Assembly: GCA_018398765.1 (NCBI GenBank)
Contig: JAHBMJ010000182.1
Location: 2,036 to 54,984, forward strand
DNA: 52,949 nt
Source of the DNA: Chromera velia
Lineage: Eukaryota > Sar > Chromeraceae
Reading direction: 5' to 3'
The translations under genes were made by a program, and so were the position numbers. The notes beneath the pieces were generated by a model. That model saw only the letters and a program-made list of their open reading frames with translations. It made no database searches and was not told the DNA's origin. Below, piece after piece: positions 4,801-46,213 of the stretch (position 1 is its first letter; each line of letters begins with the position of its first letter).

Positions 4801-7800
4801 CGGCTGCAGCGCTACCGGCTGGCGGCTCGTCTTTCGTCCCCCCTGCCCCCCTCTGCACTGGCTGTGAACAAGCACGCACAGGACGACCTACATCCTCACA
4901 GCCATGAAGGCTCAGCCCAGCAGCAAACGCACAGAAAGGATGGAACACGGCTGCACAACCGGGGGAAGCACACGCAACGACTGCCCCTCCCTCTTTGCCA
5001 CACCCACCACAGACTTCCTTCTCACTATACCCCTCTGCTGCCTTGTCCTTCTCTCCCTCTTCGTGTTTCTGCCTCTGCTGCTGCAAGGCCTTTTCTCGTC
5101 GCCTCTGCAGCCAGCAAGAGTCAGGAAGGGGAGACAGGTCCCACCGGTCCATCGTGTTCCAATTCAAACAGAATGCTCCGTGCTGCAGGAAAAAAGAAGC
5201 ACAAAACGGATGCACCCATGCCTCCCGACAAAGCGCACCGCTCACGCCAACGAAAGCGCTGCGAGCGGGGAGACTGAGCATACCCAAGGGGGAGTTCGCA
5301 AGCGCTCCCTGGTGGAAAGTCAGCTGTCTGCGTGTCTTCAGACAGGCACTGAGGAAGGGTGATCCTCCCATATCACCCCCCATCTCGGCTGATGAACCGC
5401 CAGAGGCAGTCAATGGAGAGGCAGTGCTGGTGTCCCCAGCTGCTGCCTTCTGTCGGAACGCGTACAGAAATTCACGGGTCGGTGCTACGTAGCCGTCCTC
5501 AACCGTGATCTCTGGCCCCTTTTCTGAGGGCCCTCTCTTGCTGTCTGCTGGAACGGATGCAGCAACTGCTGCGGCTGCAGCTGATGCCATGCCCCCAGAA
5601 ACAGACGGAAGGGGCGAGGCTGCTGGACCCCCCGCCCCCCCGGCTGTAACTGTGAACGCAGGAGATGGGAGAGGGGACGGGGACGCCGTTCCGTCTCCCC
5701 CAAACAAAATGCATGCAGAATCGGAAACGAGGGCGCGGACAAGCGCTGCGGGGAGCACGGGACCATCATGCTCCTCTATGTCGGCAGGCACGTAGGCGCG
5801 TTTCAAGGCACCTCCTGGCTGCAGACAGCAGCTGCACCGTGCCAGGACAGAAGGAGCTGCCGGTTCGGGCGGGTTGAAGACTTTCAAGTGATGGGCATCG
5901 TCTGGAAGGGGGGGGGCTTCCTCACAGGTGGTGGTGGAAGGGATCAGTTTGGATTCAAAGTCGGGACCCACCGGCAATTCTGGAGGACACTTTCTGTCCC
6001 CCTCACTTTCTTTCTTCACACACCCCAATAGCTCTTCGGCATCCACAGGGATATGTGTACCGAAAGGGTCCCCCACACCGTTTGTTCCGCCTGCAGCAGC
6101 AGAAGGTGCGGGGGAGGGTTCCTCTTTTTTGACCGTCAGCGAAGGGAGGGAGGGACTGGCAGCTGCCCGATTCACAGCCTCGAAAGGGATCTCTTGGGGT
6201 GCGGATTTGAATGGAACTAGAGACGGGAGCTTCCCCACCCCACCCGCACTTCCTGTGTCCGTCTGGGTGCGTGTTAAAAGATTGAGCCCCCCCCTTCCCC
6301 CCATGCCCCCAGTTCCCCCAGGGACAGTGATGGACAACCCTCCCCCCGACATGGTCCGGCTCTTCTGCCTTCCTAGACCCCCCATCCCTCCCGACGCCGC
6401 CCTCCCAAGAGAGGGCATTGTACCCCACCGTGTCCTTCTGTTCTGCCGGACGCTCTCCTCGTACGCCTGCATGCATGCAGTGCATTCATCCATTCATCCA
6501 CTCATTCCTTTCCTTCAGATAACAGCAGCAGAAGAGGGATTGAGCGCGCATCCACATGCAGAAGGAAAAGCACAAAAAGTGTACGAGAGGAAGTCTGGTT
6601 CTTTGGAAACCTTCGAGGAGCGGTCCAGAGGACGTGAGGACGACATGGAAAGAAAAAAAGATTTGCCAACGCTGTCAATCAATCCATCGACCAAAACTCG
6701 CACGAGGAAGTGAATGGAAGGTGAATGTTCAAAGTGTAGGCAGACTCACTCGCAGCGGAAGAACACATACATGCATGCATGAGAAACGACCGACCGACTT
6801 ACCATAATGGCCGCACAGGGTGCACAGTAGTAGATCGGTCTTTCTTTGTCAGGATCAAAAGCGAATGTCCACGCGTCCAGGCCGTAGCACTGCTTGTGCG
6901 TGAATATGCGACACCGGTAGCACGAGACCGTCAGACCTAGGTCTGCGGGTTGGAGGTCACTGCCTGATTTCCTGAGCCATTCCGAGACATGGCCCTGCTC
7001 GGACGTTGTGTGATCTGCACACAGTGGACCTCCAAAACAGACGGCGCAGCGTGGAGGCGGCACAGTCAGTTTTCTCTTCTCCTTCTCCTTTTCCTTTACT
7101 TTCTCCTTATCCTCTTTGTAGGGCTCTGTGGGAGACGCGTCGGGAGGTTTTGGTTCTTCTTCTTCGGCCTTCTTCTCGGGGAGTGGAAGGTCCTCGAATA
7201 CTACGCCCTCACTCTCGAAAAGAATGCGGTTGGGTGACTCCTTGTCCAATCGGAACAATCGGAGTTCGGTCGGGGGGATGTCCCGCAACCCCCTCACGAG
7301 GCCTAACCTCACATTCGACCAGCGCTGCGTGGCATACATCTGGCCTGCCAAAACTTTCAGGCCGGTTGCAATGCCCGAAGATCCCTGAAGGTTCATCAGG
7401 GGTGTGTGTGCGAGGTCAGAGGTACAGGGGACCGCTTCGGAGGCCTTCAACCTCCCACGCCGCTCAGGCTGCAATGTGCCGAACCAGGGGGCAAAGCCGA
7501 AACACTGCAGAGGCAAGACTCCAGGGGAATAACTCTCGTGCATCTCATACCGTCGCAGGGCTTCCGAAAAAACGGCTTGTCGGAGGGAGTGGCGTTGCTT
7601 TCGCAGCTTCGCTCTCGTCTCCCTCCACTTTGCCTCCACACACGCGAGCTCAAGCCCCAGCTCATCTCCCTCATCTACTTTCTCAACAGCGGCAACACCT
7701 TCTTTCTCCCCCCCCTGAGCAGCCTCAGGGTCGCGCTCTCTCTTGATTCCCTTTCCTGCTGCACCTAGCGGCTCTCCAACAATATCCCCCCCTTCCTGCG

Positions 7801-12458: not shown

Positions 12459-13632
12459 TGCAGCCGAGGGTAGAGAAGGAAATGATACCAAGAAAGAGGT
12501 CACACACAGGACTTGGCGGCCGGCAGGGCTTATCAGGTGAGCAAAAGCACAGAAAAGGAAGCGAGAAGCAAGGTAGAAGGCTAAGAGGCCCATCCAAAGC
12601 CACCAGAACCTGTCTACCTCTCCTGCGGTGCGGTTTCAGGCGAAAAATGCACACGAGACTGGCACTTGAGGAGCCCTGATCCGAACAAATGAGCCGGAGA
12701 CGGTCGGAAAGCGGCTCCAGAGAGTCGTACAAAGATTTTGAGGAATGCAGAAGAGTCAAAGGGGTGACCTGAAACTGAAAAAAGCAAGATCGCCCGTGAA
12801 AAAAATCCGAGAAAAAATCATTCTAAACCGACCTCAAACCGTTGTTGTCATCTTCGTATCAGCGAGACTGCGAGAGATCACCGACTTGTCAAGTCCTTCC
12901 TGGCCAGTTATGGCCGACCAAAAAACCCTCCCATTCTGCATCTCGACTGTATGAGAAACGAAAAGCCTTCTCCCGCACCCCAGAGTGCCAATCGGCATCA
13001 CATAACGGTAGAGACTGCGAAGGGAAGGGACCCTCAAACCACCTCTCTTTTGAGACGTGCGCTTGACCTGCCGTCCACACTTTCCCGTGCAGCTGAATTA
13101 AGTCAGAGTGCGCGCGTCAGCAGCCATCTGACGCACGCAAGCGGTGCGTTCGAATTTTTGTGCCGACCGTTCCCCGCGCCATGCATCCGTGGAACTCACT
13201 CGCAAGTTGACGCGCGCTTCTGTGCGGCCCGCCCGGCCTGAAATGGCCGCGGGTCCGACCTCGCGAATTTCGTGGTCGGAGAATGTTGGAGACGCCGGCA
13301 ACAAAATCACTATTTTTGAAGGAGCAAAGGGAGTTTATTGTCGACTGCCATTCTTTCCCCTTTCCCATCGGCTTCACTTGGCAAAGAACTCTCCGGCTTT
13401 CCCCACGTACGACCAGGACTGGGACACCGTCTTGATGCCTGTTCTGCGTTCAGTGTAAACGGAAGGCGACCATCCAGCCAGTCCCTTTCCTTCCGTCCTT
13501 CAGTACTTTTCCTCCTTTCCTCCACGACACTACAGGCACGTGTCGCCCCTCCACTGGACGTACTTATCCCCATTCAGCACCGCGACCTGTCATTTTGCAT
13601 AGTCTTGTGAAAAAAGGAGGCAGAAAGCAAAG
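12459..13632. promoter_or_regulatory. Divergent intergenic region between PHD gene and eIF4A3 gene
   Basis: Two genes are transcribed away from each other across this 1.2-kb stretch, so both promoters, and probably the missing first exon(s) of the PHD gene, should lie here. No TATA-like or other core element stands out. The segment is GC-rich around 13050-13280. The helicase ATG at 13633 closely follows an A/G-rich leader. Open frames here lack recognisable domains. Confidence 0.4.
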
Positions 13633-16328
13633 ATGGCAAAGCTTCAAGAAGAGAACCTTATTTTCGAAACCTCGGAGGAGGTCGAGGTCGTCCAGGATTT
13701 CAGCAAAATGCGTCTCGACGACGACTTGCTCCGGGGAGTTTTCGGGTATGGTTTTGAGCGGCCTTCTGCCGTTCAAGCCCGAGGCATTATTCCGATTCTG
13801 AAGGGCAGAGATGTGATTATCCAGTCGCAGTCTGGTACTGGAAAGACCTGTGTGTTTTGCCTTGGCGCACTGGCAAGTGTGAACAGGAAAGAGAGAAACT
13901 GCCAAGTTCTCATTCTCAGTCCCACACGAGAGCTTGCAGAACAGAGTCAGAAGGTCTGCATGGCCCTGGGAGAGTATCTAAATGTGCAGGTATACTGCTG
14001 CATTGGCGGTCGGTCTGTTGGAGACGACATCCGGGCCCTGGAGGCAGGCGTGCACATTGTCTCGGGTACCCCGGGCCGTGTGTTCCATATGATCAACGAC
14101 CGCCATCTGTCGACCCGTCACATGAAGATGCTGATCTTTGACGAGGCCGATGAGATGCTCGCAAAGGGATTCAAGGAGCAGGTCTACGACATCTACAGAT
14201 ACCTTCCACCGAGCACTCAGGTGGTCCTTGTGTCTGCCACGCTGCCGCATGAGGTGTTGGAGATGACACAGAAGTTCATGAACAATCCTTTCCGAGTACT
14301 TGTGAAGAGAGATGAGCTGACCCTTGAGGGCATCAAGCAGTTCTTCGTGGCCGTCGAGAGGGAACAGTGGAAGTTCGACACCCTCACAGACCTGTACGAC
14401 ACCCTCACGATCACCCAGGCAGTGATCTTCTGCAACACGAAGGCCAAGGTCGACTGGTTGGCACAGAAAATGAGGGACAACAACTTCACTGTCAGTCAGT
14501 CGACGCATGAGATGCAGAAAGTGCGTGGATTTCTTTGCGTCTGTTTCGGCAAACGGAGTCATTCGAAAGTATTATTTTTAGTCTTGAACTTGTTACCTGA
14601 AGAAGACTTTCGCTCCACAAAATACTCTTTTGGCCATTCTTCAGATAAAAAAGGGTGAAGACACACACATGATCTGTTATTTTCTTTTGTGCCCCTGTGT
14701 AACAATTGTGGTTACCGAGAAAGAGTGAGAGACAGAGAGAGGGGGGGGGGGGTGTCGAGTTGATGGTGAACTGCCGTATATAGCTCTCGGCAAGTTTTTG
14801 TTTTTTCATGCTGGTCTGTTGAAACCACGTGGTCATCGCTTTGGTTTTGGTCCACTCTCTTCCATTTCTCTGCAGGTTGCATGCATGCACGGCGACATGC
14901 CCCAGAAGGAGCGAGACGAAATTATGGCCAGGTTCCGACAGGGAGAGTCCAGGTTTGTTTATGTGGTTTGTGGACTCAGTGGTGGTCGATCGGGTGGTTG
15001 TTCTGTAGGCTTTCAGTCTTCTTTACTTCCTTGCTGCTTGTTTGTTGGCCTCTCCCTCCTTCTTTGTTTTATCGATTGCAGGCGCGTGTGTAGAGAACGT
15101 ATGATCGATTTTTCTTTCCTCAACTTACACCGCACTCAGACGAATTCCCTTCCCTCAGCAGTAGGATCGCTCTCTGTCCTCTCAGGAGGCCGGCAGGTTC
15201 TCTGCTGAGAAGCAACGGATAAAAAGTGGAAGCAGTCGTCTGCAGGTCTTTCTTGAGCATTTTTCCGTACTTGTCCCTCTTTCTCGTTCCTGTTCAGTCC
15301 CTTGTCCCCGCTCTGTCCCTCCCGTCGTACGTTTCCTTGACTGAGCTCACCTTTCTGAATTCAAGCAATCGTCAGAGCTAATTAGGTCAATGTTTGCCGG
15401 GGGGTTCGAGAAAAGCGATTGGGTGCCTTTGGGTTGACTCATGGATGCACTTGTTCGTGTTTGCTTGCTTACTTGCTCTGTCGGTTGCAGGGTGATGATT
15501 GCCACCGACGTGTGGGGAAGAGGAATCGACGTGCAACAGGTTGGGCTCTGTCCGCTTCCGTGTGTGTGTGTGAGAGAGAGAGAGAGAGTGCGTGAGAGAG
15601 AGAGAGAAAGAGAAGTGCCGTCCCGGATGTTTGCCACCTTCCTGCAATTCGCTTCCTCCCATTTGATGATGGAATTTTTGATGGTCAAGAAGGCCCTCGT
15701 GCTTCTCGTTTTTTCCGTGCATGGCACACAATGCGGTCTGTCTGCGTTTTCAACCATTCCTCCCTCTGTCCGACCCCCTGTTCATTCTTGAGCTTTCCTC
15801 TATCTGCCTCTTCAGGTGTCTCTGGTGATCAACTATGATCTTCCCAACAACCGTGAGCTGTACCTCCACCGCATTGGTCGATCTGGCCGTTTCGGAAGGA
15901 AGGGTGTGGCCATCAACTTTGTCAAGGTGGGCCGGCCTGTCTGTCTGTCTGTCTGTCGGGTTTTCCCTCTGTGTGCTTCAATCGTTTTGTGCGTTTTCTT
16001 CTCGCTCTGATTTTTGCTCTGTTCCGTCTTTTTTGAGAAGCAAGTGGGAGAAGAAGTACCTTGCGTCTTTCTATCAAGTGCTTGTCCCGGTTTTCCCGTC
16101 CTGCCTGCCTGCCTGCCTGCCTAAATGCGTGTGTGTCCAGCTGTCTTCTTTACTTTTCTCTGGTTGGTTGGTTGGTTGGGTGGGTGGTTGGTTGGTTGGT
16201 TGGTTGGTTGGTAGCTCCCCTCTCGTCCCCTTTTGCAGAACGATGACATTCGACTGCTGCGCGATATCGAGCAGTACTACTCGACGCAGATCGATGAGAT
16301 GCCCATGAACGTGGCGGATCTCATCTGA
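13633..16328 (+). CDS. eIF4A3: ATP-dependent DEAD-box RNA helicase, eIF4A3 type (exon junction complex)
   Basis: RNA-dependent ATPase; eIF4A3 is the RNA clamp at the core of the exon junction complex. Five exons: 13633-14520, 14876-14952, 15491-15539, 15816-15926, 16239-16328. They join in phase to 404 residues, the usual family length. Motifs in order: Q-motif region around F41, SQSGTGKT (65-72), [16 protein letters not shown] (170-173), SAT (201-203), then [22 protein letters not shown] and [13 protein letters not shown] from later exons. The C-terminus MNVADLI is the one I know from eIF4A3/FAL1 rather than cytosolic eIF4A1. The Q-motif reads PSAVQ rather than PSAIQ. Introns carry GA/GT and GGTT repeats. 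The gene is divergent from the PHD gene and convergent with UCHL5. Identity is secure; the choice of A3 over A1/A2 rests on overall wording and the C-terminus. Confidence 0.95.
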
Positions 16329-23411: not shown

Positions 23412-24695
23412 ATGTCGGCGTCTCGTTTGAAGGTGGCGTACCAGGGGGAAAGGGGCAGCTACTCCCACAAGGCGGTGCACGAATTTCTTGGGGCTGGTGT
23501 ATCGCCTGTGGCTCACGGAACGTTCAGTGCTGTTTTTGAGAGCGTCATCGGAAGTAAGGCCGACTATGCATTGGTCAGTGGGAGATTTGCAAGTAGGTCG
23601 CAGAAAAGACACTGCCGTTTGGGCGACAAATACCATTCCAACGAGCAGAGGAACGAAAAAGGTGCGATCGTAGCATTCGTGCACGCAGTCTGAGACATTA
23701 CAGAGGCATCAAGACCGCTTTTGCACAAGATTGAACAGAGTCTTTTCTTTGTTCTCCTTCTCCTCTTGCTATCTGTGCCAGCACATTGGCCTCGCTTGCC
23801 GTGTAAGGAAAAGCCCCCCACCTTCGTTGTGCCCTTTGACGGTTCACCAAAAGAAACTCTTCGGTGATGATGGACGACCGTCGAATAAGGCTTTGGGCTG
23901 ACCGTTTGTTTCCGTTCCCTTCCGTTCCCTCCAGGTCCCCATAGAGAACACACTGGGGGGAAGCATCCACGACAACTATGACCTGATGCTCCGGAACGAC
24001 CTGCATATTGTGGGGGAGTACAACCTGAGGGTGTCGCACTGCCTGCTGGCTCTCCCAGGAGTCTCAAAGGAGACAGTGAAGGTCGTGCTCTCACAGTCAG
24101 TCAGTCAGCCAGTCAAATTTTATTTTAGCCAGGCAGCCGCTCATCATCGAACATTTAAATTGTGGATTCGGCTCTTCTTCTCTCTCCCTCTCCCCCTTTG
24201 GTCGTTCGTGTGCTCTCTCAGTGCCCCCCTCTTTCTCACATTCTTTGGAGGTACTAAGACCAGGATATGCTGAATCGCATCTTTCATGCCCATTAAACAT
24301 ATATCTGCCGAACGTTTCAAATCCCAATACTGCTGAAAGAGACGTTACGTCAATTCACTTAATTACACGATCGAGCTGCAGTCCCCAGGCATTGGCCCAA
24401 TGCACAGACTACCTGAAGGCCCACGGGTATGAGCCCAGAGTCGCATACGACACGGCAGGATCCGCCAAGCTAATCTCTGAGGCCAGCAAAAGGGAAAGGG
24501 CAAAAGGGGGCGGGGCAGAAGGAGCAGGGCAGCAGGGCCCTGGCGGGCCGGGGGGACAGGAGCTGAAGTGGGATGAGACGGCAGCAATCGCGAGTGATCT
24601 CGCAGCGGCAGAATATGGTTTGCAGGTTCTGGAGAGGGGCATTCAGGTCGGTCTGTCGGATCATCAGGGCCTTCCTTTACAATTGTCTCTAGACC

Positions 24696-24726
<31 letters not shown>

Positions 24727-24734
24727 GCTCTCTG

Positions 24735-24768
<34 letters not shown>

Positions 24769-27128
24769 CGTGTGTCTGTGCGTGCGTTTTTCTCTTTGAG
24801 ACTGTGGCACCTCCCGCCTTTCCCGTTGCGCCTGTGATTCAGTGGTTCCGCAGTAAAACACAATCTGTTGTGAAGCTTTTCAGTCTTGCAGGTGTTCTGT
24901 AGTTCTTTCTTCCCTCTGCTCTGATAGCTTTCTGCGGTGTGGATTCCCCTCTCCTCCTCTCAGCAGGCAGAGTGTTGCTCGATCGATTGTCTTCTGCTGC
25001 TGCAGGATTTTTCTGACAATTTCACAAGGTTCATCCTTCTCTCAAGGGAACCATTGAGGCCTCCCGCCAAGATCTTCGCACCTCCATCGCTGTCTGTTTC
25101 CACCATGGACGCAGCCGGAGGGAGGAAGTGTGAGGTTTCCCTGAAGACCTCAATCGTTCTTCTGGTTTCCCACCAGGCGGGGGCCCTCTTCAAAACTCTG
25201 GCTGCACTCGCTCTTCGAGATCTCTCCCTGACCAAAATTGAGTCGAGACCCGTACCCGCACCCCTACTGCACAGCATAGGCCTCCACCGGAAATCCACTG
25301 AAGGCTCCGATGGGTCCAGTCCCGGCCCCGCACGGCAGATTTCCCTCGGGGGGGATAGCCAGTGCCCCCCTGGGTCGGGGTCAGGCACGCCCTTCACGTA
25401 TATGTTCCCCATGGACGTCCTTGCAGACGCGGGGGACCCAAACTTTCAGTGCGCGCTGTCGAACCTCCGTGAGATTTCGCCCCTTGTGCGGGTTCTCGGG
25501 ACCTTTGCCTTCCATGAAGACAGTAGCTCGGCACCTGGCTCAGCTGCGGTCAGTCGTTCTGTCACGAGCAAACGAAAGAAGAGGATCGGAGAAGTGTAGG
25601 CACTCGGGGGCCATGCAAATTAATTGATGATCTGCCCTTCGGCTCGCCTTCATCAGTTTTCGCAAGAAGAAAGGAACAAATGCGCCTCACACGTGCCACC
25701 GGGAGTCCTTCGTTGAGTGAGTAAGTGAGTGAGTGAGTGAGTGAGAGCCTGCGTGGAAGGATCGGCGTGTGCTTTCCGCCCTCCGGTTTTCATGGTAGTT
25801 TTTGTCTTTCCATTGTTCTCCTTCTGAATGAATTTTCAGGCGTCAGAGGCTGGAGGGCCGACCTCCGTTGGTGTGGAGGCGACGCGCGTGATGCTTCGGC
25901 TGCGTCACCCGGGGGTGTACACGGGGGGGGACGGGGGGACTAGTGGAGCTGCGACCCCTCTTCCAGGATCACCGACAGGGAAGGGAGGGGGGGGAAAGGG
26001 TACCGTCAGTTCGGAGGCAGCATCTCAGGTGGTGGTGGTGGGGAAGAAGGGGAATCCTCTGCGAGTTGGAATTGTTGGGTTTGGAAATTTCGGAAAATTT
26101 TTGGCTGAGAAATTCGTTTCCCTGGGTGCTCGGGTGTGGTCAACAAGCAGAAGCGCGAAGGGGAACAGGGAGGCTGCGATTCGGCTTGGGTGCGTTGATT
26201 TTTTTCCTGAAATGAACATCCGGAGGCTGATCGAGGAAGCAAAGGTGAACGTGCTTGTGCTCTGTATGAGCATCATGAGCTTTGAGCAGAGCGTAAAGCA
26301 AATGATGGAGGACAAGGGCATCCTGCAGGCGCTGGAAACAGGAAAGATTCTTGTCACAGAAGTACTCTCGGTCAAAGAGTGGCCCAAAAAGGTTTTGATG
26401 AAGTCAGTCAGAGAAGCCCAAGAAAAGTGGCACGAAAGATGGGAGTGTTAGATATACAACAGCCTTCGATAGTGTATTTGTCTGTCTTTAGATGTCTCAG
26501 TCTACCCTTTCGTCTGATTGTTTGCCTTTCCAAATGCCATAGAAGATCAGAGAGAGTAGGGGTCCAAGGTTTTATCACGGTCCTGAAATTCCCCCACTTC
26601 CCATCTGTTCAATGTTCAATTTCTCATTTGACTTTTGTTCGTGTGCCCATTTGTTTGTGTGGGAAACCCATCAGTGTGTCTGTCTGTCTAACTTCCATGG
26701 GACTGTCGACCCACTCCAAAAGAAGCAGAGACAGGTGTACTTCAATCCGGTGGAAGATGGTCATCTCCACTCGCCTCTGCTTGGGTGTTGTCGTCTTCCG
26801 AATTGTTCGCAGGCTTCTGCCCTCCTCTACTCCGATTGTGTGCACACATCCGATGTTCGGGCCCGAATCGGGGAGGCATGGGTGGGGGGGACTTCCGTTC
26901 GTGTTCGAGGTTGTCAGGAGGCCCGTGGGGGAAACGGCAGGGGACAGAAACGGGGCGTTCGGGGGGAGCGGGGACCTCTGTCGCCATTTCCTCGAGTTGT
27001 TTTCCTCCGCCGGATGCAGGTCGGCTGATGGCAATACTTCTCTTTACAAATAGACTTTGTCTGCATCTGCTCTGTGACTCGCTTTTGTCTCGATATTTTA
27101 ATTGTCGTGGTTGCCCCCAACGCCCCCC

Positions 27129-27197
<69 letters not shown>

Positions 27198-30100
27198 TGT
27201 GTGTGGTGTCTCCTGTTGGATCTCGCTCATGTACATTCTGTGTGTCTCGTCTGTATAATCAGCTGAAGTGCAACAAACAGCAGCCTACCTACGCATGCAA
27301 CCTTTCTGCCTGTCGTCTCCCTGCAGGATGATCGAAATGTCGGCAGAGCTCCACGACGCCTACGCGGGAAGGTCACAGTTTGTGACACACCTGACTGGCA
27401 GGGTATTGGACAGACAGGTAAGAAGGACACAAATCTGTCTTTGGTCCCGTTCCACTCATTGGCGTCTTCTTTTTTCTCACCTGCCTTCCTTCCTTCCTTA
27501 TTTCTCTTTGATTCGATCTGTGTCCTTCCTGTTGTCTGCGTGAGTGAGTGCAGCGGCTGACCCCCACTCCGATCGACACGAAAGGGTTCCAGAGCCTTCT
27601 TCACCTGGTGGACAACACAGTCAGCGACAGGTGGGTGTGGGGCAGCATTCTTTCGTCGTTTGTACTTCAGAATCGGGACGAATCTTGTTGAGATTCTTCC
27701 TCTTTTGCGTCTTGCTTGTATCTGCATGCAGCTTCGATCTCTTTTTCGGTCTCTTCCATTTCAACGAGTGCGCTCCCGCTCAGCTAGCCCTGTTCAAGGA
27801 GGCCTTCGCAGAAATTGCCACGGACATCCGGAAAAGCGCGAAGAGGCTTCGGATGGCAGAGAGAAAGAGAGACGCACGCCCCATTGAGGACGGGACTCCA
27901 GGAGACGGTGTGAAGACTTTGAAGGAGGCGATGGAGCACGACTTTTCTGAAACAACAAAGGCTGTGGTCGAGTCGGGCACTGTGAAGGTCCACGCGTTGA
28001 CGAAAAAACTGGCGGCAGAGGGAAGACAAGTCATCTCGATGGCTGTGGGAGAACCCGACTTTCTCCCGCCCCCACAGGTCATTCTCTCTTCTTCTCTGTG
28101 TCTCTTTCTGGTTGTCTCAGTCAATCAATCGATTCTTCAGCAAAGCAAGCAAGCAAGCAATCAGACACCCAAATCATCGGCGGTATGTGCTACCTGCACA
28201 TGCACTTGTCGCACTCGTCTCTTTCTCCTCTCGAGATCTCTCTGGCTGCGCCGCCCTCTCTCTGTTCGCTAAGGTCCGTGTGGACCTCCTGCCTGCACTT
28301 TTTCTCTGATCTGGTCTTCGTTCCTCATCGCAGAGTTGCTTTCAATATGGTCGTTTGTGCTTTGGTTTCGCAGGTCATGGAGGCAACGAAACGCGCAGTG
28401 GATGGCGGAGACGTCCGGTGAGTGAGTGAGTGAGTGAATGAGTGAGGGAATGAGTGAGTGAGGGAATGAGTGAGTGAGTGAGTGAGTGAGTGAGCGAGTC
28501 AGCCAGTCAGCCAGTCAGCCAGTCAGTGAGTGAATGAATGAGTTTGCGGGTAAGTGAGTGAGCGACTGGTCGCTCCGCAGAGTGGGTGAAGCAAGCAGGG
28601 AAGAAGGGAAGGAGGAAGGGAAGGTCAGTCCATGGAGGCTTCACGCAAGCATAATAAGTCAAAGTCAGGACCGACATTCGGCTTTTGGGCTGCAAATTGT
28701 ATCTGTGCCTTTGTCTTTGTGTTTGCCGCCCTGCTAAGAAGTGGCAAAGGAATATGAAAACACAAGGAAACGGCAAATTTGATGACCGCCCATTTTTTGT
28801 CGCCTTTCTCTTGTTTCTTTTGCAAGGGAGTTTTGTTATTTTTAGGGTTTCATCTGGACCTCAAAAAGTCTCTTTTGTTTGATTTCATCTTCGTCATTTC
28901 GGGTCCTCCACACGCAGGCGGACAGGCAGTCATCTGCTCTCGCACACTTACACATGCACATACACGTACTTGAACGCGAATGAGGACTGACGGTTGCTTC
29001 TGGGGCAGTGGTACGTAAGGACACCCGCTTAGCAGTTCTGCAAGCACGCATTCGTCTTTCCTCTATCCCTGTACCCTTCAACAAACCGGGATTTTCACGC
29101 AGGTATGTTGCAAGCAGCGGGACACTGGAGCTTCGAAAGGAGGTCGCCAAGTACCTGAAGTAAGTACGTTGACAAGTGATTGAGCGGATGAGTTTGTGAC
29201 TGAGTGAACGAGTGGTCGGGTGAGTTGGATCGCTCAGCTTTTTGGTTTTACCTCCATGTGCATTTGTGCTTTTTTGTAGCGGATGAGTTTGTGACTGAGT
29301 GAACGAGTGGTCGGGTGAGTTGGATCGCTCAGCTTTTTGGTTTTACCTCCATGTGCATTTGTGCTACTCCTCTGTCTTCCCCTTTCTCTTCATCTTCGAG
29401 AGCACAGATGACATGCGGAAGAAATCAAGAGAACTTTAGAGTTGGGGAGGGGTTTCGTGGCTCTTGGTAGTCTATTCATCTCTCTCTCTTGAGGGCCGGT
29501 TGGTCACGAGATCTCTGTCTTTCAAGCAACAGATCAATTTTGTTTTCCTCTCTCGGTGGCCCAAGATCTTTTTTCAGTTTCCTTCATCCACTCTGTGTTC
29601 ATTCTTCTGCGTTTTTACCTCCGTTCTGCCCTCCTCTTTATGTGTTCTCCCTCTCCTTCCTTACCTCTATTGCAGAGAAAAGAAAGGGGTCGAGTACGTT
29701 CCCGATGAGGCCAGTGCACTGCTTGTCTCTCTTTGTTTCTTTCTTTCTTTCTTTGGTTCGAAATGCACGTCCCGTTCTGTCTGCCTGGTGAAGTGGTGTC
29801 TCCTATCCTCTTGTTTTCAGTCCTCTGTCTCTTGAATGGCGATGTCAACGATCTGTTTCTTCAGTCATGCTCGATGGTTGTGCGTGTAATCTCCTCTCAA
29901 CAAACACATGAAGCCCTCCCTATCTTTGCAGATTGTCGTGAGCAATGGTGCAAAGCAGTGTGTGTATCAGGCGGTCCTTGCACTTTGTGGAGAAGGCGAA
30001 GAGTAAGCAAAAGGGTGGGCGAGGGATGGAATCGATCAGAGAATGAATGAATGAGTGAGTGGTTGCACGGAGGTCTGCGTGAAAGGGGAAAGGGCGAGTT

Positions 30101-30569
30101 CTTTCAACGCTGGCTTCTCATTGGAGTCTTTCTGGCATCGTTTCAAATTGTTTCTTCCCCCCTCTTTGCGAAGAGATCACGAAAGCATTTCTCGCGACTT
30201 GTCAGTGGTTTTTCTTTTTGGTCTGCTGCTGCTTTTTCATGGTCATTCTGTCCCGACCCCTGTCGCTTGAAAGGAAAGGGTGATTTTTCAAGGCTTGACT
30301 CCCTGCTGCCTTGGGGCCAAGAATCGGAATGTATGGATTGCATGAACTCTTTGAAAACATCTGCCTCCATGCACATCTCACGCGTGAGCGTTTTGCAGAG
30401 TTGTGATCCCCACCCCCTGCTGGACTTCGTATCCTGATATCGTGAAGATGGTGTGTCTGTGAGTTGGTGGGTGGGTGGGTGGGACGGTTGACTTGGCGCA
30501 TGGCTGCTCATTTTTGAAGTGTCGGCTGTGAAGCGGTCGAAGTGCAATTGTCAGTTGAGTCTCTGGTGC

Positions 30570-30600
<31 letters not shown>

Positions 30601-33286
30601 TTGGTTCTTTCTTTCTTTTTTTCTTTTTTTCTTTCTTTCTTTCTTTCTTTCTTTCTTTTGGTTCTTTCTTTTGGTTCTTTCTTTTGGTTCTTTCTTTCTT
30701 TCTTTCTTTCTTTTGGTTCTTTCTTTCTTTCTTTCTTTCTTTCTTTCGTTCCTTCCAACCTTCTCATCGTGCTCGCTGCAGTCTGGGGCTACTCCTGTGT
30801 TTCTGGAGACTCCTTTGTCCGACGGTTTCACTCTTCGGGCGGCTGCTTTGAGGGAGTGCCTCCTTTCTCACCCGAAGGCAAAGTGCCTGATTCTCTGCAA
30901 CCCTTCTAATCCCACGGTCAGTCAGTCAGTCAGTCGGTCTCTTTCGGCCCGTCGGGTGGTCGGCTTCCAATCTTTCGCAGTACAGAGGGGCAAAAAATTG
31001 CTCGGATTCTTCCTTTTTTTCTTCTTTCTTTTTTTTCACTGCATCGTTGTTCCCTCCTCCATTCTCGCTGCATGCGCTTCTTTGAAGCATCTTAGCAGTT
31101 TCCCACGCCCTTCATTCAGGAGCCCCCCTGTGACTTTTCCGCGTCTTGCGTGTTGGCATTCTTGCTTCGTCTCTGAGTGGCTGCTCCCTCCTTGGAAGGG
31201 CGTTTGCATGCACTCATGCAGGGTGCCGTGATTCCTCCTGAGGAGCTGCGTGCCATCGCGGCTGTGCTCTCAGAGGAGGCCTTCGAAGATCTGTACGTGA
31301 TCGCAGACGAGATCTATGAGGCTCTCTGCTACGACATCCCTCACCTGTCTTTTGCCTCAATCCCTGGAATGGTGAGCTCAAACAAAGTGGGCTTATTAGA
31401 ACAGTCACCACGTTCGCATTAAGCATAGAGCGCTCGTGTATCAAATTTGGGATTCTGCCTTGATGTTTACCTTCAATTAAGCGAGAGAGTTGAATCTACA
31501 GCTGTTGGTTGTTCTCGGAGGGACCGCGTTCCCGTCATTCTCACACACGATCGATCATTCTGGCGTAATCGTCCCTTCATTTTTTAAAAATAGATTGATT
31601 CTTTAATGCATCGAATTTTTCCCCCGCTGGGACGTGGCGGCAGCTGAGTTTAGTTAGCTCTGTGAGGTCTCCAAAGAGACAGTTCTGAGGGAGGGAGGGA
31701 GGGAGGGAGGGAGGGAGGATGGTTTGGGGACTGTGGAGAAAGAGGAGAGGGAGACCGAGGGATCCCTTCACATCATCTCGATTTCCTTTCTCTATCGTCC
31801 CTCTAATCCCTCCTTTTTCCCTTGTTTTCGTTCTCTCTTCCTTCCTTCCTTCCTTCCTTCCTTCTTTCCTTCCTTCCTTCCTTCCTTCCTTCCTTCCTTT
31901 CCCACTGACCAACTCACTGACTCGATCGCTGCAGAGGGAAAGGACTGTGACAATCAACGGATTCTCCAAGGGCTTTGCCATGACGGGATTCAGACTTGGA
32001 TACGCTGCTGCAGATCTGCCAGGTCCGTCCGTCCGTCTCTTGGTTGCATGAGCGGTGCATGGATTGGGACGTCATTCGCGAAGTGTTTACAGACGTTGTT
32101 TGGCAGTGCTCTGACAGGAGGATGTCGTTTGAGTCAGCAAGCTCTTGAGTAAGTGAGTCCGTCATCAGGAAAGTATCGATCTGCTGTTGGTTTCTTTGTT
32201 GCCATGCACACTGACCTTTCTTTCTTCCTCTCTTTCCCCCTTTCCCTCTCGCAGTGGCGAAGCAAATGGGGAAACTCCAGGGACAGATCACCAGTTGTGC
32301 ATCTTCCATCGCACAGGTCGGTCTGTCTGTCTGTCTGTCTGATCGTGTCAGGCAGGTTTCTTTTCTTCAATGGAATTGAAATTTCACATCCAAAGTCCAA
32401 AGAGCGGTCCGGTCCATCCGGTCTCTGAAGTTCTTTCTCTTTGGATTTTTGAAGGGAGGAAGAGGGCGCCACGCTGACATGAGCATGCACTCAGAAAAAT
32501 CAATCGACGCACGCAAGGACGCATCGAAATTGGATTTTTGAAGGGAGGAAGAGGGCGCCACGCTGACATGAGCATGCACGCAGAAAAATCAATCGACGCA
32601 CGCAAGGACGCATCGAAATTGGATTTTTGAAGGGAGGAAGAGGGCGCCACGCTGACATGAGCATGCACGCAGAACAATTGAACGAAGGACACCGATGGCG
32701 GAAAAGGACAGAGAGTTTCAGAGGGTGATACACACACACGCCCGCGCGTACAATCTTGTTTGTGCCCCTCCGCCACCCCGCCACCCCCTTCACTTCATCT
32801 ATGAGGGCACCTCCCGAGACCGAAGAAATGGAACAAATGTTTCTGACGGGAAGACGAAGAGGACAGGAAAGAGGAAAAGAGGGAATTCAGTCCAGCCACT
32901 AAGGCCCATGCCGCCACGGCCAATCGTTTGCGTTTCCGTTGGTCCCCTTGTGTGCAGGCAGCTGGAGTGTCTGCTCTCCGTGACGTTCCAGAGAAATGGT
33001 TGGAGGATCGGAGGCTGGAGATGCAGGCAAAGAGGGAGAGGCTCCTTCAAGGCCTCAAGGGGGCAAAAGGGATCGAGACTTACAAACCAGCGGGGGCCTT
33101 TTACCTGCTTCCGGATGTGGGGGCTTTGCTAGGCAAATACACTGGCGGAGAGAAGAAAAGGCTGATTTCGACAAGGTCGGCCAGTAGGGGTGTGTGTCCA
33201 TGGAGAGAAGAAGAAAGGAAAAAAAAAAAAAAGAAAGGAGCAGACAGGCAGACAAAGAGACACGACGAAGCGCGCACGCGCGCGCG

Positions 33287-33353
<67 letters not shown>

Positions 33354-34529
33354 GGACAGACGGACAGACAGACAGACAGAGGACGAAAGAGAGCAGACTT
33401 TGGGGGAGCAAGACAAATTGAAGATGAGGGAGAAAGAGCAGAGAAGGGAGGATGGATGAACTTGTCTGCACCAAATGACCTGCAGGCTCACCAGTGGGCT
33501 GACCGGGTGAATGAATGAATTAATGAATGGAGGAATGAATGAGTCTCGTGTAGACGGCTGCAGCATTCCCTTCGGTCTCACGTGACTTTATTCTGGCAGG
33601 CCTGCATTCTTTGGCAGTTTTTTTTGCTTTCGCTCTATTGCTCCTTTCTCCAGTGCATTGGAAGTGGAGTGGAGCGCGGCTTTCGTGGTTTTGATCGGTG
33701 TTTCTGACAAACACACACACACATACACACACACACAGAGAGAGAGGATGGTGTCTCGCTCGGTAGCGAGACAAAGTCTTGATGTTCGCTCCTTTTGTTT
33801 TCTCTTCTTTTCTTCTTTTGTGCAGTGCGGAGTTCTGCGAAGCCCTCCTCGAAGAAGAGGGCGTCGCTCTGGTTCCAGGTCTGCAAACCTGTCTGTCCCT
33901 TTCTTTCTTTCTTTCTTTCTTTCTTTGTCCACCTGTCTTCTTGCCTGTCTGCCTCAATTTTGTTGTTCTTCTGTCTGCATATGTGGCTGTGGAACAAAAT
34001 GGAAAGAAAGAAGTCATACGTGTTGGAGTAACTTTGTGTCTCTGCCTCCGTGTGTCTGTCTGTTTGACTGTCTATCAGTCTGTTTGACTGACTTTTCCTT
34101 TCTCCAACCGGCTTTTCCTCGGCAAATTGCCTCCACGGGTCGTCGGAGGGATTCCCTCGACCCCCCACACGAGGCCCAACACACCATGCATGCATGGATG
34201 CATGCAATGTCCAATCAAGATGAAGCACCAGCAACTACAGCGAATATTGTTCTTGTTGGGTCACCGACAAAGTGACTCACTCACTCGCTCACTTACTGGG
34301 CAGATATTAACTGATCAGTAGAGTGCTGACCAAATGTCTACAAGGCCAATCAACCAAACTAATTAAAGGAGTATACGATTGACTGAATGTGTGAACTAAT
34401 GAATTACCGCTTGCAGGAGAAGCCTTTCAGGCTCCTGGAACAATCCGGATCTCGTATGCAACCTCGACAGAAATCATCGACGCGTGTGCCCAGAAACTGA
34501 CGGCTTTTGCGTTTCGTTTCTGCTCTTAG
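23412..34529 (+). CDS. Trifunctional fusion: arogenate/prephenate dehydratase (ACT) - arogenate dehydrogenase - prephenate aminotransferase
   Basis: Covers prephenate to arogenate, then to Phe and Tyr. 21 exons: 23412-23573, 23935-24095, 24382-24646, 25006-25548, 25840-26402, 26813-27019, 27327-27417, 27554-27630, 27732-28077, 28374-28417, 29103-29159, 29676-29709, 29932-30002, 30399-30450, 30782-30916, 31222-31371, 31935-32022, 32255-32316, 32958-33175, 33826-33878, 34417-34529; sum 3,492 nt, 1,163 residues. Dehydratase 6-215 ([17 protein letters not shown] at 203-205); ACT about 243-365 (GALF 255-258, ESRP 275-278). Dehydrogenase about 450-700 (GFGNFG 457-462; [10 protein letters not shown] 576-585, plant arogenate style; SRS after the second strand hints at NADP). 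Aminotransferase about 760-1163 (GEPDF 797-801, NPSNPTG 931-937, D965, Y968, PLP lysine K998 in [11 protein letters not shown]1137); its GTLELR resembles plant prephenate aminotransferase. The ACT domain suggests feedback by Phe or Tyr. No chorismate mutase and no obvious targeting peptide. Confidence 0.92.
24700..24770. repeat. CT/GT/GA microsatellite, fusion-gene intron 3
   Basis: Pyrimidine CT repeats, then a TG run, then GA repeats, starting about 55 bases after the donor of the exon ending at 24646. Confidence 0.8.
27129..27206. repeat. CT then GT microsatellite, fusion-gene intron 6
   Basis: A CT array is followed by a GT array, inside the intron between exons 26813-27019 and 27327-27417. 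Confidence 0.8.
28418..28563 (+). repeat. GAGT/CAGT tetranucleotide array starting at a splice donor
   Basis: The donor after the exon ending at 28417 reads GTGAGT and is directly repeated as GAGT units, drifting to GAAT and then to CAGTCAGC units, for about 145 bases. The array begins exactly at the exon border, so the splice donor sequence itself is the repeated word. Confidence 0.75.
29183..29365 (+). repeat. 95-bp tandem duplication, fusion-gene intron 11
   Basis: The unit starting AGCGGATGAGTTTGTGACTG at 29183 recurs at 29278 with almost no change; the second copy runs until about 29365. It follows the donor of the exon ending at 29159. This is a recent local duplication with no coding content. 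Confidence 0.85.
30568..30757 (+). repeat. TTTC tetranucleotide array next to a 3' splice site
   Basis: About 190 bases of TTTC units with TTGG interruptions end roughly 25 bases before the acceptor of the exon at 30782. It acts, or at least reads, as an extremely long polypyrimidine tract. Confidence 0.85.
31687..31900 (+). repeat. GGGA array and TTCC array, fusion-gene intron 16
   Basis: A GGGA run (31687-31718) and a TTCC run (about 31836-31899) are near reverse complements of each other, so a hairpin in the intron transcript is possible. The pyrimidine run ends about 35 bases before the acceptor of the exon at 31935. Confidence 0.75.
32443..32675 (+). repeat. 89-bp tandem minisatellite, fusion-gene intron 18
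   Basis: Units begin at 32443, 32532 and 32621, each opening with GGATTTTTGAAGGGAGGAAG. The third copy is cut short near 32675. Two full copies and one partial copy are nearly identical, so the expansion is recent. It lies in the intron between exons 32255-32316 and 32958-33175. Confidence 0.9.
33220..33382 (+). repeat. Compound CA/GA/CAGA array, fusion-gene intron 19
   Basis: An A-rich stretch, a GCGCGC stretch, CA repeats, GA repeats and then CAGA/GACA tetranucleotide units follow the donor of the exon ending at 33175. Confidence 0.8.
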
Positions 34530-44563: not shown

Positions 44564-45969
44564 CAGAGGGAGGAGAGAGAGACTCACCCAGACTCGAAGG
44601 TCACAGTGTGTCCGTAGAGGGAGGAGGACTTGTGTTGGAGGACTCTCTTCCAGGAGACGCTCTTCTTGAGGAAGTAGTAGGGGTTCTCCATGAACTGCAT
44701 CGTCTTGTTGGCGACCTGCATGCACTCGTTTGGGCAGGAAGAAGGAAGGAAAGCAAGAATTTGAACGAGAACGATCAAACGTCAAGTCAGTAGAGGGAGA
44801 AGGGGAAAGAAGAATGAAGAAAAGAGACTCCATGCAAAACGTCTTCAAAGACCCCCCATCGTCTTGCCTGGGCGACATAAGATCTGTTGCGACAGCATAA
44901 GCAAAGACGAGCACAAATTGACTGACTGACTAACTGACTGACTGACTGACTGACGTCAGGGAAGGCGGGGTCGTTGACCAGGGCAGAGGGGATCGCCTCG
45001 ACTCCCAGAAGAAGCTTCGGGTGGGGATCCGCTGCCTTGATCTGGTGAGACCCGTAGTAGTCTGTCCAGTCGCTCTTCTGCACACACACATGCACACACA
45101 GGGGGGAGGGGGAGGGGAGCAATAGGTACGGCGGTGTAGACAGGATGCTATAACAGGAGGGTCAACCAGGGGTAGGCGTACACAAGAAAACACAACAGGC
45201 AACGATAATCGTCTTCGCAAAGCAAACAAGGTCAGTCACTTCGCCACCAAAATCGGCTACAGCAATACAAAGAGTGGAAAGCCCCCCGACTCACGTAGCT
45301 GCCGCTCTTGTCATAGTAAGCAGAGGGGAAGAAGCCCGGCTGCTGAGCGAAGTCGCACCCCAAGTAGTCGTTAGGGAAGGGGATGTGATCCCACGACTTG
45401 TAGTGTGTTGCTCCGTACAGCTTCGGGATATACGGAAACTTTCCCTTTGAGGGGAGATCGACGCAGGTTCCGTTATCCCGATCCCAGCCGAAGGGACCAG
45501 TCTGGAGCGCACCGTTAGCGAGAAAGTCGTTGCCGAAGGCAGGAGAGGTGAAATCGTACTCGGGGGGGTCGCCGTTTTCATTGAGAACAGCGTTCCACTC
45601 TTGCTCCGCGCTGCTGTCACACACATCAGCAAAAACAGCGGCGTCAGATCCAGTTGCCTCCAGACAGTTGGAGCTGGCCTTGTTCACGATGTTTACAGTG
45701 CCATTCTCGGCGGGGACAAAGAGCCATTCGAAGGCCTCTTGAGGACCGTCGGCAATTTGCCCGAGGCCTGTGGGTTGGGGAGCATCAGCCGCGGGATCTG
45801 CGAAGAGCCCCAAAGTTGGGTCTGCCTCCGAAGCAAGTACGAAGGAGCAAGAAGTTCCATTTACAGTGGCAAGCTCAAAGAAGGCCTCTGCCTGCTCTTG
45901 GGTGGGGAAGTCGGAAGCCGACGCGAGGACCGCGCCGAGCCCGAACAACAGGTTCCGACTTCGCATCAT
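37159..45969 (-). CDS. Secreted 1,217-residue protein: ricin-B-like start, Asn/Ser/Thr-rich repeat array, cadherin/Ig-like domains
   Basis: 25 exons: 45969-45295, 45077-44955, 44715-44588, 44297-44180, 43974-43761, 43570-43464, 43291-43235, 43017-42912, 42761-42646, 42372-42229, 42010-41900, 41645-41541, 41271-41128, 40936-40826, 40671-40558, 40341-40256, 39985-39919, 39520-39358, 39131-38997, 38804-38713, 38452-38389, 38250-38193, 38026-37767, 37667-37644, 37490-37159. They sum to 3,654 nt in phase. A signal peptide covers about residues 1-19. Residues about 80-130 (CLEATG, then EQEW) resemble half a ricin-B trefoil. Residues 456-895 are Asn/Ser/Thr/Asp-rich with many N-x-S/T sites. Residues 897-1000 and 995-1099 resemble cadherin-like beta-sandwiches (GHFEYTPKENFVGIDFFFYT; FFVYTPPADT). 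The tail is rich in GMP/GLP. A cell-surface, wall or matrix glycoprotein is the likely role, by inference. Exact family unknown. Confidence 0.85.
38464..38531. repeat. CA repeat in secreted-protein intron
   Basis: CA units broken by CG, immediately upstream (minus strand) of the exon at 38452-38389. Confidence 0.8.
44484..44562. repeat. CA then GA microsatellite in secreted-protein intron
   Basis: Two CA arrays and one GA array lie downstream (minus strand) of the exon ending at 44588. Confidence 0.8.
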
Positions 45970-46213
45970 GTTGCACGATTCACGTGTTGTTCAAGATCAC
46001 CAAATGGTTGTTTCCCTTGCGACACAACTCCCGTGAGTCGAGAATTCTGTCGTTCCCGAAGAAAGTTTGTCTTGTCTGCTGTTAGTGACCTTCCTCGGAA
46101 GTCTGGAAAGCTGCATAAGAAGGAGAGGCTGAATGCAATCGATCAAAGATCGAGTTCGATCGATCTAGATATGCATGCATGCAGCTAGCCGATTATGATT
46201 AATTGATTATATA

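What the first reader, a model, noticed from the sequence alone, without database searches (positions are those of the whole stretch)
23412..34529. One gene encodes the whole prephenate-to-Phe and prephenate-to-Tyr route
Seen: 21 exons join in consistent phase into 1,163 residues with dehydratase and ACT domains, a plant-like arogenate dehydrogenase and a plant-like prephenate aminotransferase, all with catalytic motifs intact. No stop or in-frame start break separates the parts once introns are removed. Known: in plants these are three separate proteins acting around arogenate. Inference: a single chain makes arogenate and immediately commits it to Phe or Tyr, so the branch point could be channelled and controlled by the one ACT domain. 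Two-part TyrA/PheA fusions exist in bacteria; I cannot check whether this three-part order has been described.
Basis: partly seen in the sequence, partly recalled or inferred. Interest (0 to 1): 0.9.

Follow-up and report, generated by a model that had tools for sequence, protein, structure and literature searches.

The report
Three-enzyme Phe/Tyr fusion gene
One gene of the alga Chromera velia encodes a single protein carrying the three enzymes expected to turn prephenate into phenylalanine and tyrosine, and the same fused protein is found in oomycetes, a thraustochytrid, a dinoflagellate, a haptophyte and other protists, apparently without having been described.

Summary
21 exons (23412-34529) give 1,163 residues, identical to a UniProt entry of Chromera velia CCMP2878. 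The TyrA-to-aminotransferase join lies inside one exon; the dehydratase-ACT-to-TyrA join needs one 291-base intron. The arrangement is not unique: 87 of 120 listed relatives have the same order PDT-ACT-TyrA-PAT, among them oomycetes, Hondaea, Prorocentrum, Emiliania, Amorphochlora and Arcella. It is deposited, and two entry names spell out all three activities, but ten full-text searches of an open-access library turned up no paper describing it. Residues fit an arogenate route: TyrA 222-equivalent Asp in 86 of 87, aminotransferase T84- and K169-equivalents in 86 and 84 of 87. The three domain trees agree far beyond chance, so the parts have travelled as one gene. So the intact enzyme is probably cytosolic, and break-up goes with plastid-type targeting. 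Channelling is untested; the model has flexible linkers and pTM 0.54.

The parts
23412..34529 (+). whole gene, 21 exons, 1,163 aa PDT-ACT-TyrA-PAT fusion
   Evidence: (identical to P0001)
23433..25050 (+). PDT (prephenate/arogenate dehydratase) domain, exons 1-4, residues about 8-211, TRF at 203-205
   Evidence: (8-204 in the 1,156-residue model)
25144..25512 (+). ACT domain inside exon 4, residues about 243-365, GAL and ESRP motifs, with a low-complexity insert
   Evidence: not called by Pfam
25549..25839 (+). intron 4, the one intron on which the PDT-ACT/TyrA join depends
26059..27828 (+). plant-type TyrA (arogenate dehydrogenase) domain, exons 5-9, residues about 451-722, D689 = position 222
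27732..28077 (+). exon 9, which carries the TyrA C-terminus and the aminotransferase N-terminus in one open frame
27955..34526 (+). class Ib prephenate aminotransferase domain, exons 9-21, residues about 765-1163, T773, K858, K998
29710..29931 (+). intron 12, GC-AG instead of GT-AG

Best explanation
The gene encodes a trifunctional enzyme. The C-terminal aminotransferase domain converts prephenate to arogenate. The middle TyrA domain oxidises arogenate to tyrosine. The N-terminal dehydratase converts arogenate (or in part prephenate) toward phenylalanine, and its ACT domain senses Phe. It is an old protist fusion inherited largely as one gene, works outside the plastid, and has been broken up in ochrophytes, where the pieces often carry plastid-type presequences. 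Shown: gene structure, shared architecture, catalytic and specificity residues, agreement of the domain trees, absence of a presequence. Inferred: the activities, substrate preference, cytosolic location, Phe feedback, single origin and direction of the break-up. The likely benefit is fixed stoichiometry and proximity at the branch point; true channelling is only a possibility.
For: Exact gene model. 87 of 120 listed relatives have the same four-domain order; P0027, P0033 and P0073 of these bear transcriptome-type names. Soybean TyrA chains align so that Chromera has D at 222 and T at 219, as in the chain 5t95, while 5t9e has N and M there (meaning of residue 222 from PMC5681985, passages); D in 86 of 87. 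Variant Arabidopsis PAT chains place T773 and K858 at the two changed positions, kept in 86 and 84 of 87. PDT T, R, F in 86, 87 and 87 of 87, ESRP Glu in 86 of 87. TyrA residues match only this locus in the held genome. Whole-fusion tree groups Chromera with P0040 (98*) and these with the Prorocentrum clade (95*). Domain trees share 18, 13 and 10 of 31 splits against shuffled maxima of 2, 3 and 4. Median of 4 residues before the PDT domain in 86 intact fusions against 55 in 21 PDT-ACT-TyrA forms; presequence with hydrophobic core in 0 of 86 against 16 of 21.
Against: No enzyme assay, no RNA reads seen, no localisation data. The only chorismate mutase found in the genome (C755) has a signal-like N-terminus, so prephenate may be made in another compartment than the fusion. 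8 of 87 intact fusions lack the first part of PDT and cannot be judged for a presequence. The break-up may count as only one to three independent events, and TyrA-only proteins show the hydrophobic presequence in just 19 of 108. The branch putting plant, red-algal and Gracilibacteria TyrA outside the fusions has support 92, not starred. In the PAT tree the plant and Rhizobium rows fall among fusions (97*), which does not fit a clean single clade of fusions.
Confidence: 0.75

Rival explanations
1. The dehydratase domain works on prephenate, so Phe is made through phenylpyruvate and a transaminase, while only Tyr goes through arogenate.
For: Databases name the domain prephenate dehydratase; sequence does not settle PDT against ADT, and some plant enzymes of this family use both substrates (PMC10845154, passages).
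Against: Fusion to a PAT with the specificity residues and to a TyrA with Asp at 222 makes arogenate the likely common intermediate.
Confidence: 0.25
2. Adjacent separate genes were joined by annotation.
For: The PDT-ACT/TyrA join depends on a predicted intron; exon 5 has an in-frame Met at its 18th codon.
Against: The TyrA-PAT join lies inside one exon; only 291 bases separate exon 4 from exon 5; the same order is found in 86 other listed proteins and, from the ACT domain on, in the MMETSP ORF P0040.
Confidence: 0.04
3. The fusion spread between protists by lateral or endosymbiotic transfer rather than by vertical descent from an old common ancestor. (Not exclusive with the functional reading.)
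For: Patchy list of holders; Arcella sits next to the Emiliania group (92, 95*); a reversed TyrA-PDT fusion in Gracilibacteria branches with plant and red-algal TyrA (91, 92).
Against: Chromera with Prorocentrum (95*), oomycetes with unnamed relatives (100*), and Hondaea with an MMETSP row (100*) each hold together in the fusion tree.
Confidence: 0.35

Closest known systems
Deposited PDT-TyrA-aminotransferase proteins of oomycetes and other protists (e.g. P0029, P0046)
   Same: Same domains in the same order; apart from P0001 itself, 33-44% identity in the best local segment, which covers 24-100% of the query
   Different: Chromera has long low-complexity inserts in PDT, ACT and the ACT-TyrA linker
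Plant arogenate pathway (ADT, TyrAa, PPA-AT)
   Same: Same three enzyme types; TyrA and PAT specificity residues match
   Different: Separate proteins in plants, mainly plastid-located (PMC11439500, passages)
Bacterial TyrA fusions, e.g. hisHb-tyrA and tyrA-aroF (PMC1173090, passages)
   Same: Fusion of neighbouring aromatic-pathway steps; hisHb-tyrA joins an aromatic aminotransferase to TyrA
   Different: Two parts, other aminotransferase family, no PDT
Gracilibacteria TyrA-PDT fusion (L004, and metagenome protein P0178)
   Same: Plant-type TyrA joined to PDT
   Different: Reverse order, no ACT found, no aminotransferase
PDT-ACT-TyrA proteins such as P0098 (Ochromonadaceae)
   Same: Same first three domains in the same order
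   Different: Aminotransferase missing; hydrophobic presequence in 16 of 21

Membership tests
Plant-type TyrAa (clade I arogenate dehydrogenase) | acidic residue at position 222 | tested here: met
   D689 aligned to position 222 of soybean PDH1 chains; D in 86 of 87 fusions
Plant-type TyrAa (clade I arogenate dehydrogenase) | arogenate dehydrogenase activity | not testable with these tools
   needs assay
Class Ib prephenate aminotransferase | Thr84 and Lys169 equivalents (numbers and meaning recalled; paper not held) | tested here: met
   T773 and K858
Class Ib prephenate aminotransferase | PLP lysine | tested here: met
   K998; K in 82 of 87, the other 5 gaps
PDT/ADT with ACT | TRF catalytic triad; GAL and ESRP in ACT | tested here: met
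   motif meaning from PMC10845154 passages
PDT/ADT with ACT | arogenate rather than prephenate as substrate | not tested
   no plant ADT was aligned; the sequence seen does not decide
Bifunctional P-protein or T-protein | chorismate mutase domain in the chain | tested here: not met
   no CM by Pfam
Protist PDT-ACT-TyrA-PAT fusion | four domains in this order in one chain | tested here: met

The most novel reading that the evidence does not exclude
An ancient cytosolic trifunctional arogenate-pathway enzyme is the shared protist form of late Phe/Tyr synthesis, including in non-photosynthetic lineages. The separate enzymes of diatoms and other ochrophytes arose from it by stepwise fission, the pieces gaining plastid presequences as the pathway moved. 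The arogenate route would then not be mainly a plastid trait, and the enzyme may channel arogenate at the branch point.
Probability: 0.4. Interest if true: 0.75.

Novelty: new variant of a known kind. Interest (0 to 1): 0.55.

Why it matters
If right, the last steps of Phe and Tyr synthesis in many protist lineages run on one polypeptide that the literature I could search does not mention. That makes channelling, shared regulation and the link between gene fission and plastid relocation directly testable. It also bears on the proposal, discussed in PMC5681985 (passages), that the arogenate route to Tyr is tied to photosynthetic organisms.

Tried and rejected
My first exon 2/3 junction was wrong by 7 residues and was corrected. 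A viral carrier, which the 363-kb 'seawater metagenome' contig of P0082 made me consider, was not supported: 6 pattern matches in viral contigs, none a relative by tblastn. A bacterial donor with the same order was not found: of 30 pattern stretches in GTDB contigs 8 encode a relative: one a reversed TyrA-PDT fusion (L004), one adjacent separate tyrA and pheA (L006), one matching only the aminotransferase part (L005), five matching only the TyrA part. The scan used two TyrA peptide patterns, so bacterial PDT or PAT without such a TyrA would be missed. The TyrA tree with distant bacterial outgroups has inner branches of 1.7 to 5 changes per column, so I did not use its root; the tree without them dropped 9 rows (6 outgroup rows and P0086, P0089, P0094). 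P0089 was also left out of the whole-fusion tree. Trees used representatives: 64 of 240 rows plus 7 loci, 62 of 215 plus 3, 36 of 88, 34 of those 36, without P0040 and P0074. In the presequence counts P0085 (intact) and P0110 (PDT-ACT-TyrA) were dropped because they do not begin with Met. The Pfam chorismate mutase family found nothing in the genome, while TIGR01802 did, exon by exon below its cut-off. Chorismate synthase and EPSP synthase in the genome could not be checked because the searches did not complete. I did not run a fold search on the model. The alanine linked to PDT activity in pine ADT (A314; PMC10845154, passages) was not placed, for want of a plant ADT in hand. Of the 18 papers listed I read passages of 3; of the 2, one.

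Full report
What is there. The window lies in contig C181 of a held genome of 177.8 Mb in 4,040 contigs; the published Chromera assembly is 193.66 Mb in 5,953 scaffolds (PMC4501334, passages), so the held copy is smaller. The gene at 23412-34529 splices from 21 exons into 1,163 residues, identical to the UniProt protein of Chromera velia CCMP2878 returned as P0001. In my first 1,156-residue model, whose numbers after about residue 104 are 7 lower than the final ones, Pfam finds PDT at 8-204, PDH_N at 477-578 and Aminotran_1_2 at 782-1142. The closest solved structures are a plant prephenate aminotransferase (5wmh, E 1e-89), prephenate dehydrogenase 1 (5t95, 2e-53) and the prephenate dehydratase 2qmx (5e-51); I recall these as Arabidopsis, soybean and Chlorobium proteins. 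The TyrA-aminotransferase join is inside exon 9. The PDT-ACT/TyrA join needs intron 4. The genome paper states that RNA-seq was used as intron evidence; I saw no reads for this gene.

How unusual it is. Of 174 proteins with E <= 0.001 among 7,993 scored candidates, 120 were listed. With profiles cut from an alignment of 18 of them (A1), 87 of 120 show PDT-ACT-TyrA-PAT, 21 PDT-ACT-TyrA, 7 ACT-TyrA-PAT and 5 TyrA-PAT; some of the shorter ones may be truncated models, and at least 7 of the 87 start inside PDT. Named holders of the full order include Phytophthora, Pythium, Albugo, Bremia, Lagenidium, Hondaea, Prorocentrum cordatum, Emiliania huxleyi, Amorphochlora amoebiformis and Arcella intermedia; Arcella could be contamination from food, which I did not check. 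Two source names already spell out all three activities (P0029, P0046). So the finding is not unique to Chromera. Ten full-text searches listed no paper whose title or printed abstract start describes the fusion, and the passages I read in PMC5592239, PMC11439500, PMC1173090, PMC5681985, PMC10845154, PMC6832408 and PMC4501334 do not mention it. Most papers listed were not opened, and most subscription papers are not in that library.

What it most likely does. The printed alignments to soybean TyrA chains put Chromera D689 at residue 222 and T686 at 219; an acidic 222 gives arogenate specificity (PMC5681985, passages). Alignments to two variant plant PAT chains put T773 and K858 at the two positions changed there, which I recall as the prephenate-specificity residues T84 and K169. 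Over the 87 full fusions the TyrA Asp is kept in 86, the PAT Thr in 86, the PAT Lys in 84 (2 gaps, 1 Gln), the PLP lysine in 82 (5 gaps), T, R and F of TRF in 86, 87 and 87, the ESRP Glu in 86. The straightforward reading is prephenate to arogenate by the last domain, then arogenate to Tyr by the middle domain and to Phe by the first, under Phe control through ACT. The dehydratase substrate is not decided by sequence.

One gene, long shared. In 34 representative fusions, trees of PDT-ACT, TyrA and PAT share 18 (PDT-ACT/TyrA), 13 (PDT-ACT/PAT) and 10 (TyrA/PAT) of 31 splits; 1,000 label shuffles each reached at most 2, 3 and 4. The whole-length tree of 36 representatives puts Chromera with the MMETSP ORF P0040 (98*) and these with the Prorocentrum clade (95*), oomycetes with unnamed metagenome proteins at 100*, Hondaea with an MMETSP row at 100* (quick method, SH-aLRT only). 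P0040 carries the end of ACT, then TyrA and PAT; at 47-52% identity it is the nearest relative; the listing does not name its organism.

Break-up and targeting. Among rows that begin with Met, intact fusions have a median of 4 residues before the PDT match (86 rows; 5 with 30 or more), PDT-ACT-TyrA proteins 55 (21 rows; 18 with 30 or more), PAT-only proteins 50 before PAT (109 rows), TyrA-only proteins 73 before TyrA (108 rows). A presequence of at least 30 residues with a hydrophobic core (mean Kyte-Doolittle over 10 residues at or above 1.8; one cut-off, not tuned; no targeting predictor was at hand) occurs in 0 of 86 intact fusions, 16 of 21 PDT-ACT-TyrA proteins, 57 of 109 PAT-only and 19 of 108 TyrA-only proteins. 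Among 24 N-termini printed, four diatom-type PATs (P0242, P0248, P0268, P0273) show an AFSP motif after the hydrophobic stretch, which I recall as part of the diatom plastid signal. 8 of 87 intact fusions lack the first 20 residues of the alignment and cannot be judged. The Ochromonadaceae PDT-ACT-TyrA row and eight TyrA-only rows, diatoms among them, group together (88, 85) inside the fusion side, which favours fission over a pre-fusion state. The number of independent break-ups is small, so this is a correlation to test, not a proof.

Genome context. Within the search the TyrA residues match only this locus; the aminotransferase part has other, weaker hits on contigs C1013, C2328, C32, C234, C2239 and C1418. 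The one chorismate mutase found is on C755, in three exons each below the family cut-off; joined, they score 304.5 bits against a cut-off of 170.9 for TIGR01802, and a PDT-like stretch (Pfam 33.8 bits, cut-off 25.2) follows in the same open exon. Further exons with an altered PDT end and an ACT-like stretch are my reading by eye. Its N-terminus has a hydrophobic core (2.80). If that gene is plastid-targeted and the fusion is not, prephenate would have to cross membranes; this is unexplained.

Structure. The AlphaFold model (50-row alignment A2) has mean pLDDT 84.4, 792 of 1,163 residues at 90 or more, stretches under 50 at 152-164, 217-238, 292-323, 369-385, 400-447 and 611-617, and pTM 0.54. 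It supports separately folded parts on flexible linkers and says nothing reliable about their mutual placing, so channelling remains a guess.

Verdict. Real, correctly read, part of a widespread and apparently undescribed protist enzyme architecture; not unique, and its catalytic claims are inferred.

Noticed in passing
G000 contig C755, about 29.5-33.1 kb, minus strand (L002, L020): The only chorismate mutase found in the genome (eukaryotic type, TIGR01802) is followed in the same open exon by a PDT-like stretch and, by eye, an ACT-like stretch with altered motifs; it has a signal-like N-terminus.
   Followed up: partly
L004 5423-6862 (Candidatus Gracilibacteria) and protein P0178: Plant-type TyrA fused to PDT in reverse order without aminotransferase; groups with plant and red-algal TyrA.
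   Followed up: partly
P0098-P0119, P0242, P0248, P0268, P0273, P0310, P0358: PDT-ACT-TyrA and PAT-only proteins often carry signal-plus-transit-like presequences that intact fusions lack.
   Followed up: partly
P0082 (363-kb contig labelled seawater metagenome), P0081, P0097: Intact fusions with odd amino-acid make-up forming a long separate clade (100*); source organism unknown; no relative found in viral contigs.
   Followed up: partly
L006 5977-7539: Adjacent separate tyrA and pheA genes in an unplaced bacterium.
   Followed up: no
window 13603-14655 +: DEAD-box helicase reading frame, Pfam DEAD 150.5 bits.
   Followed up: no
window 4538-6493 - and 45235-45990 -: PHD-like zinc-finger frame and a ricin-type beta-trefoil lectin-like frame, both weak Pfam matches just over cut-off.
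   Followed up: no
window 29183-29365 and 32441-32678: Introns 11 and 18 hold near-perfect tandem copies: 95-base unit x 1.9 (100% match) and 89-base unit x 2.7 (98%).
   Followed up: partly
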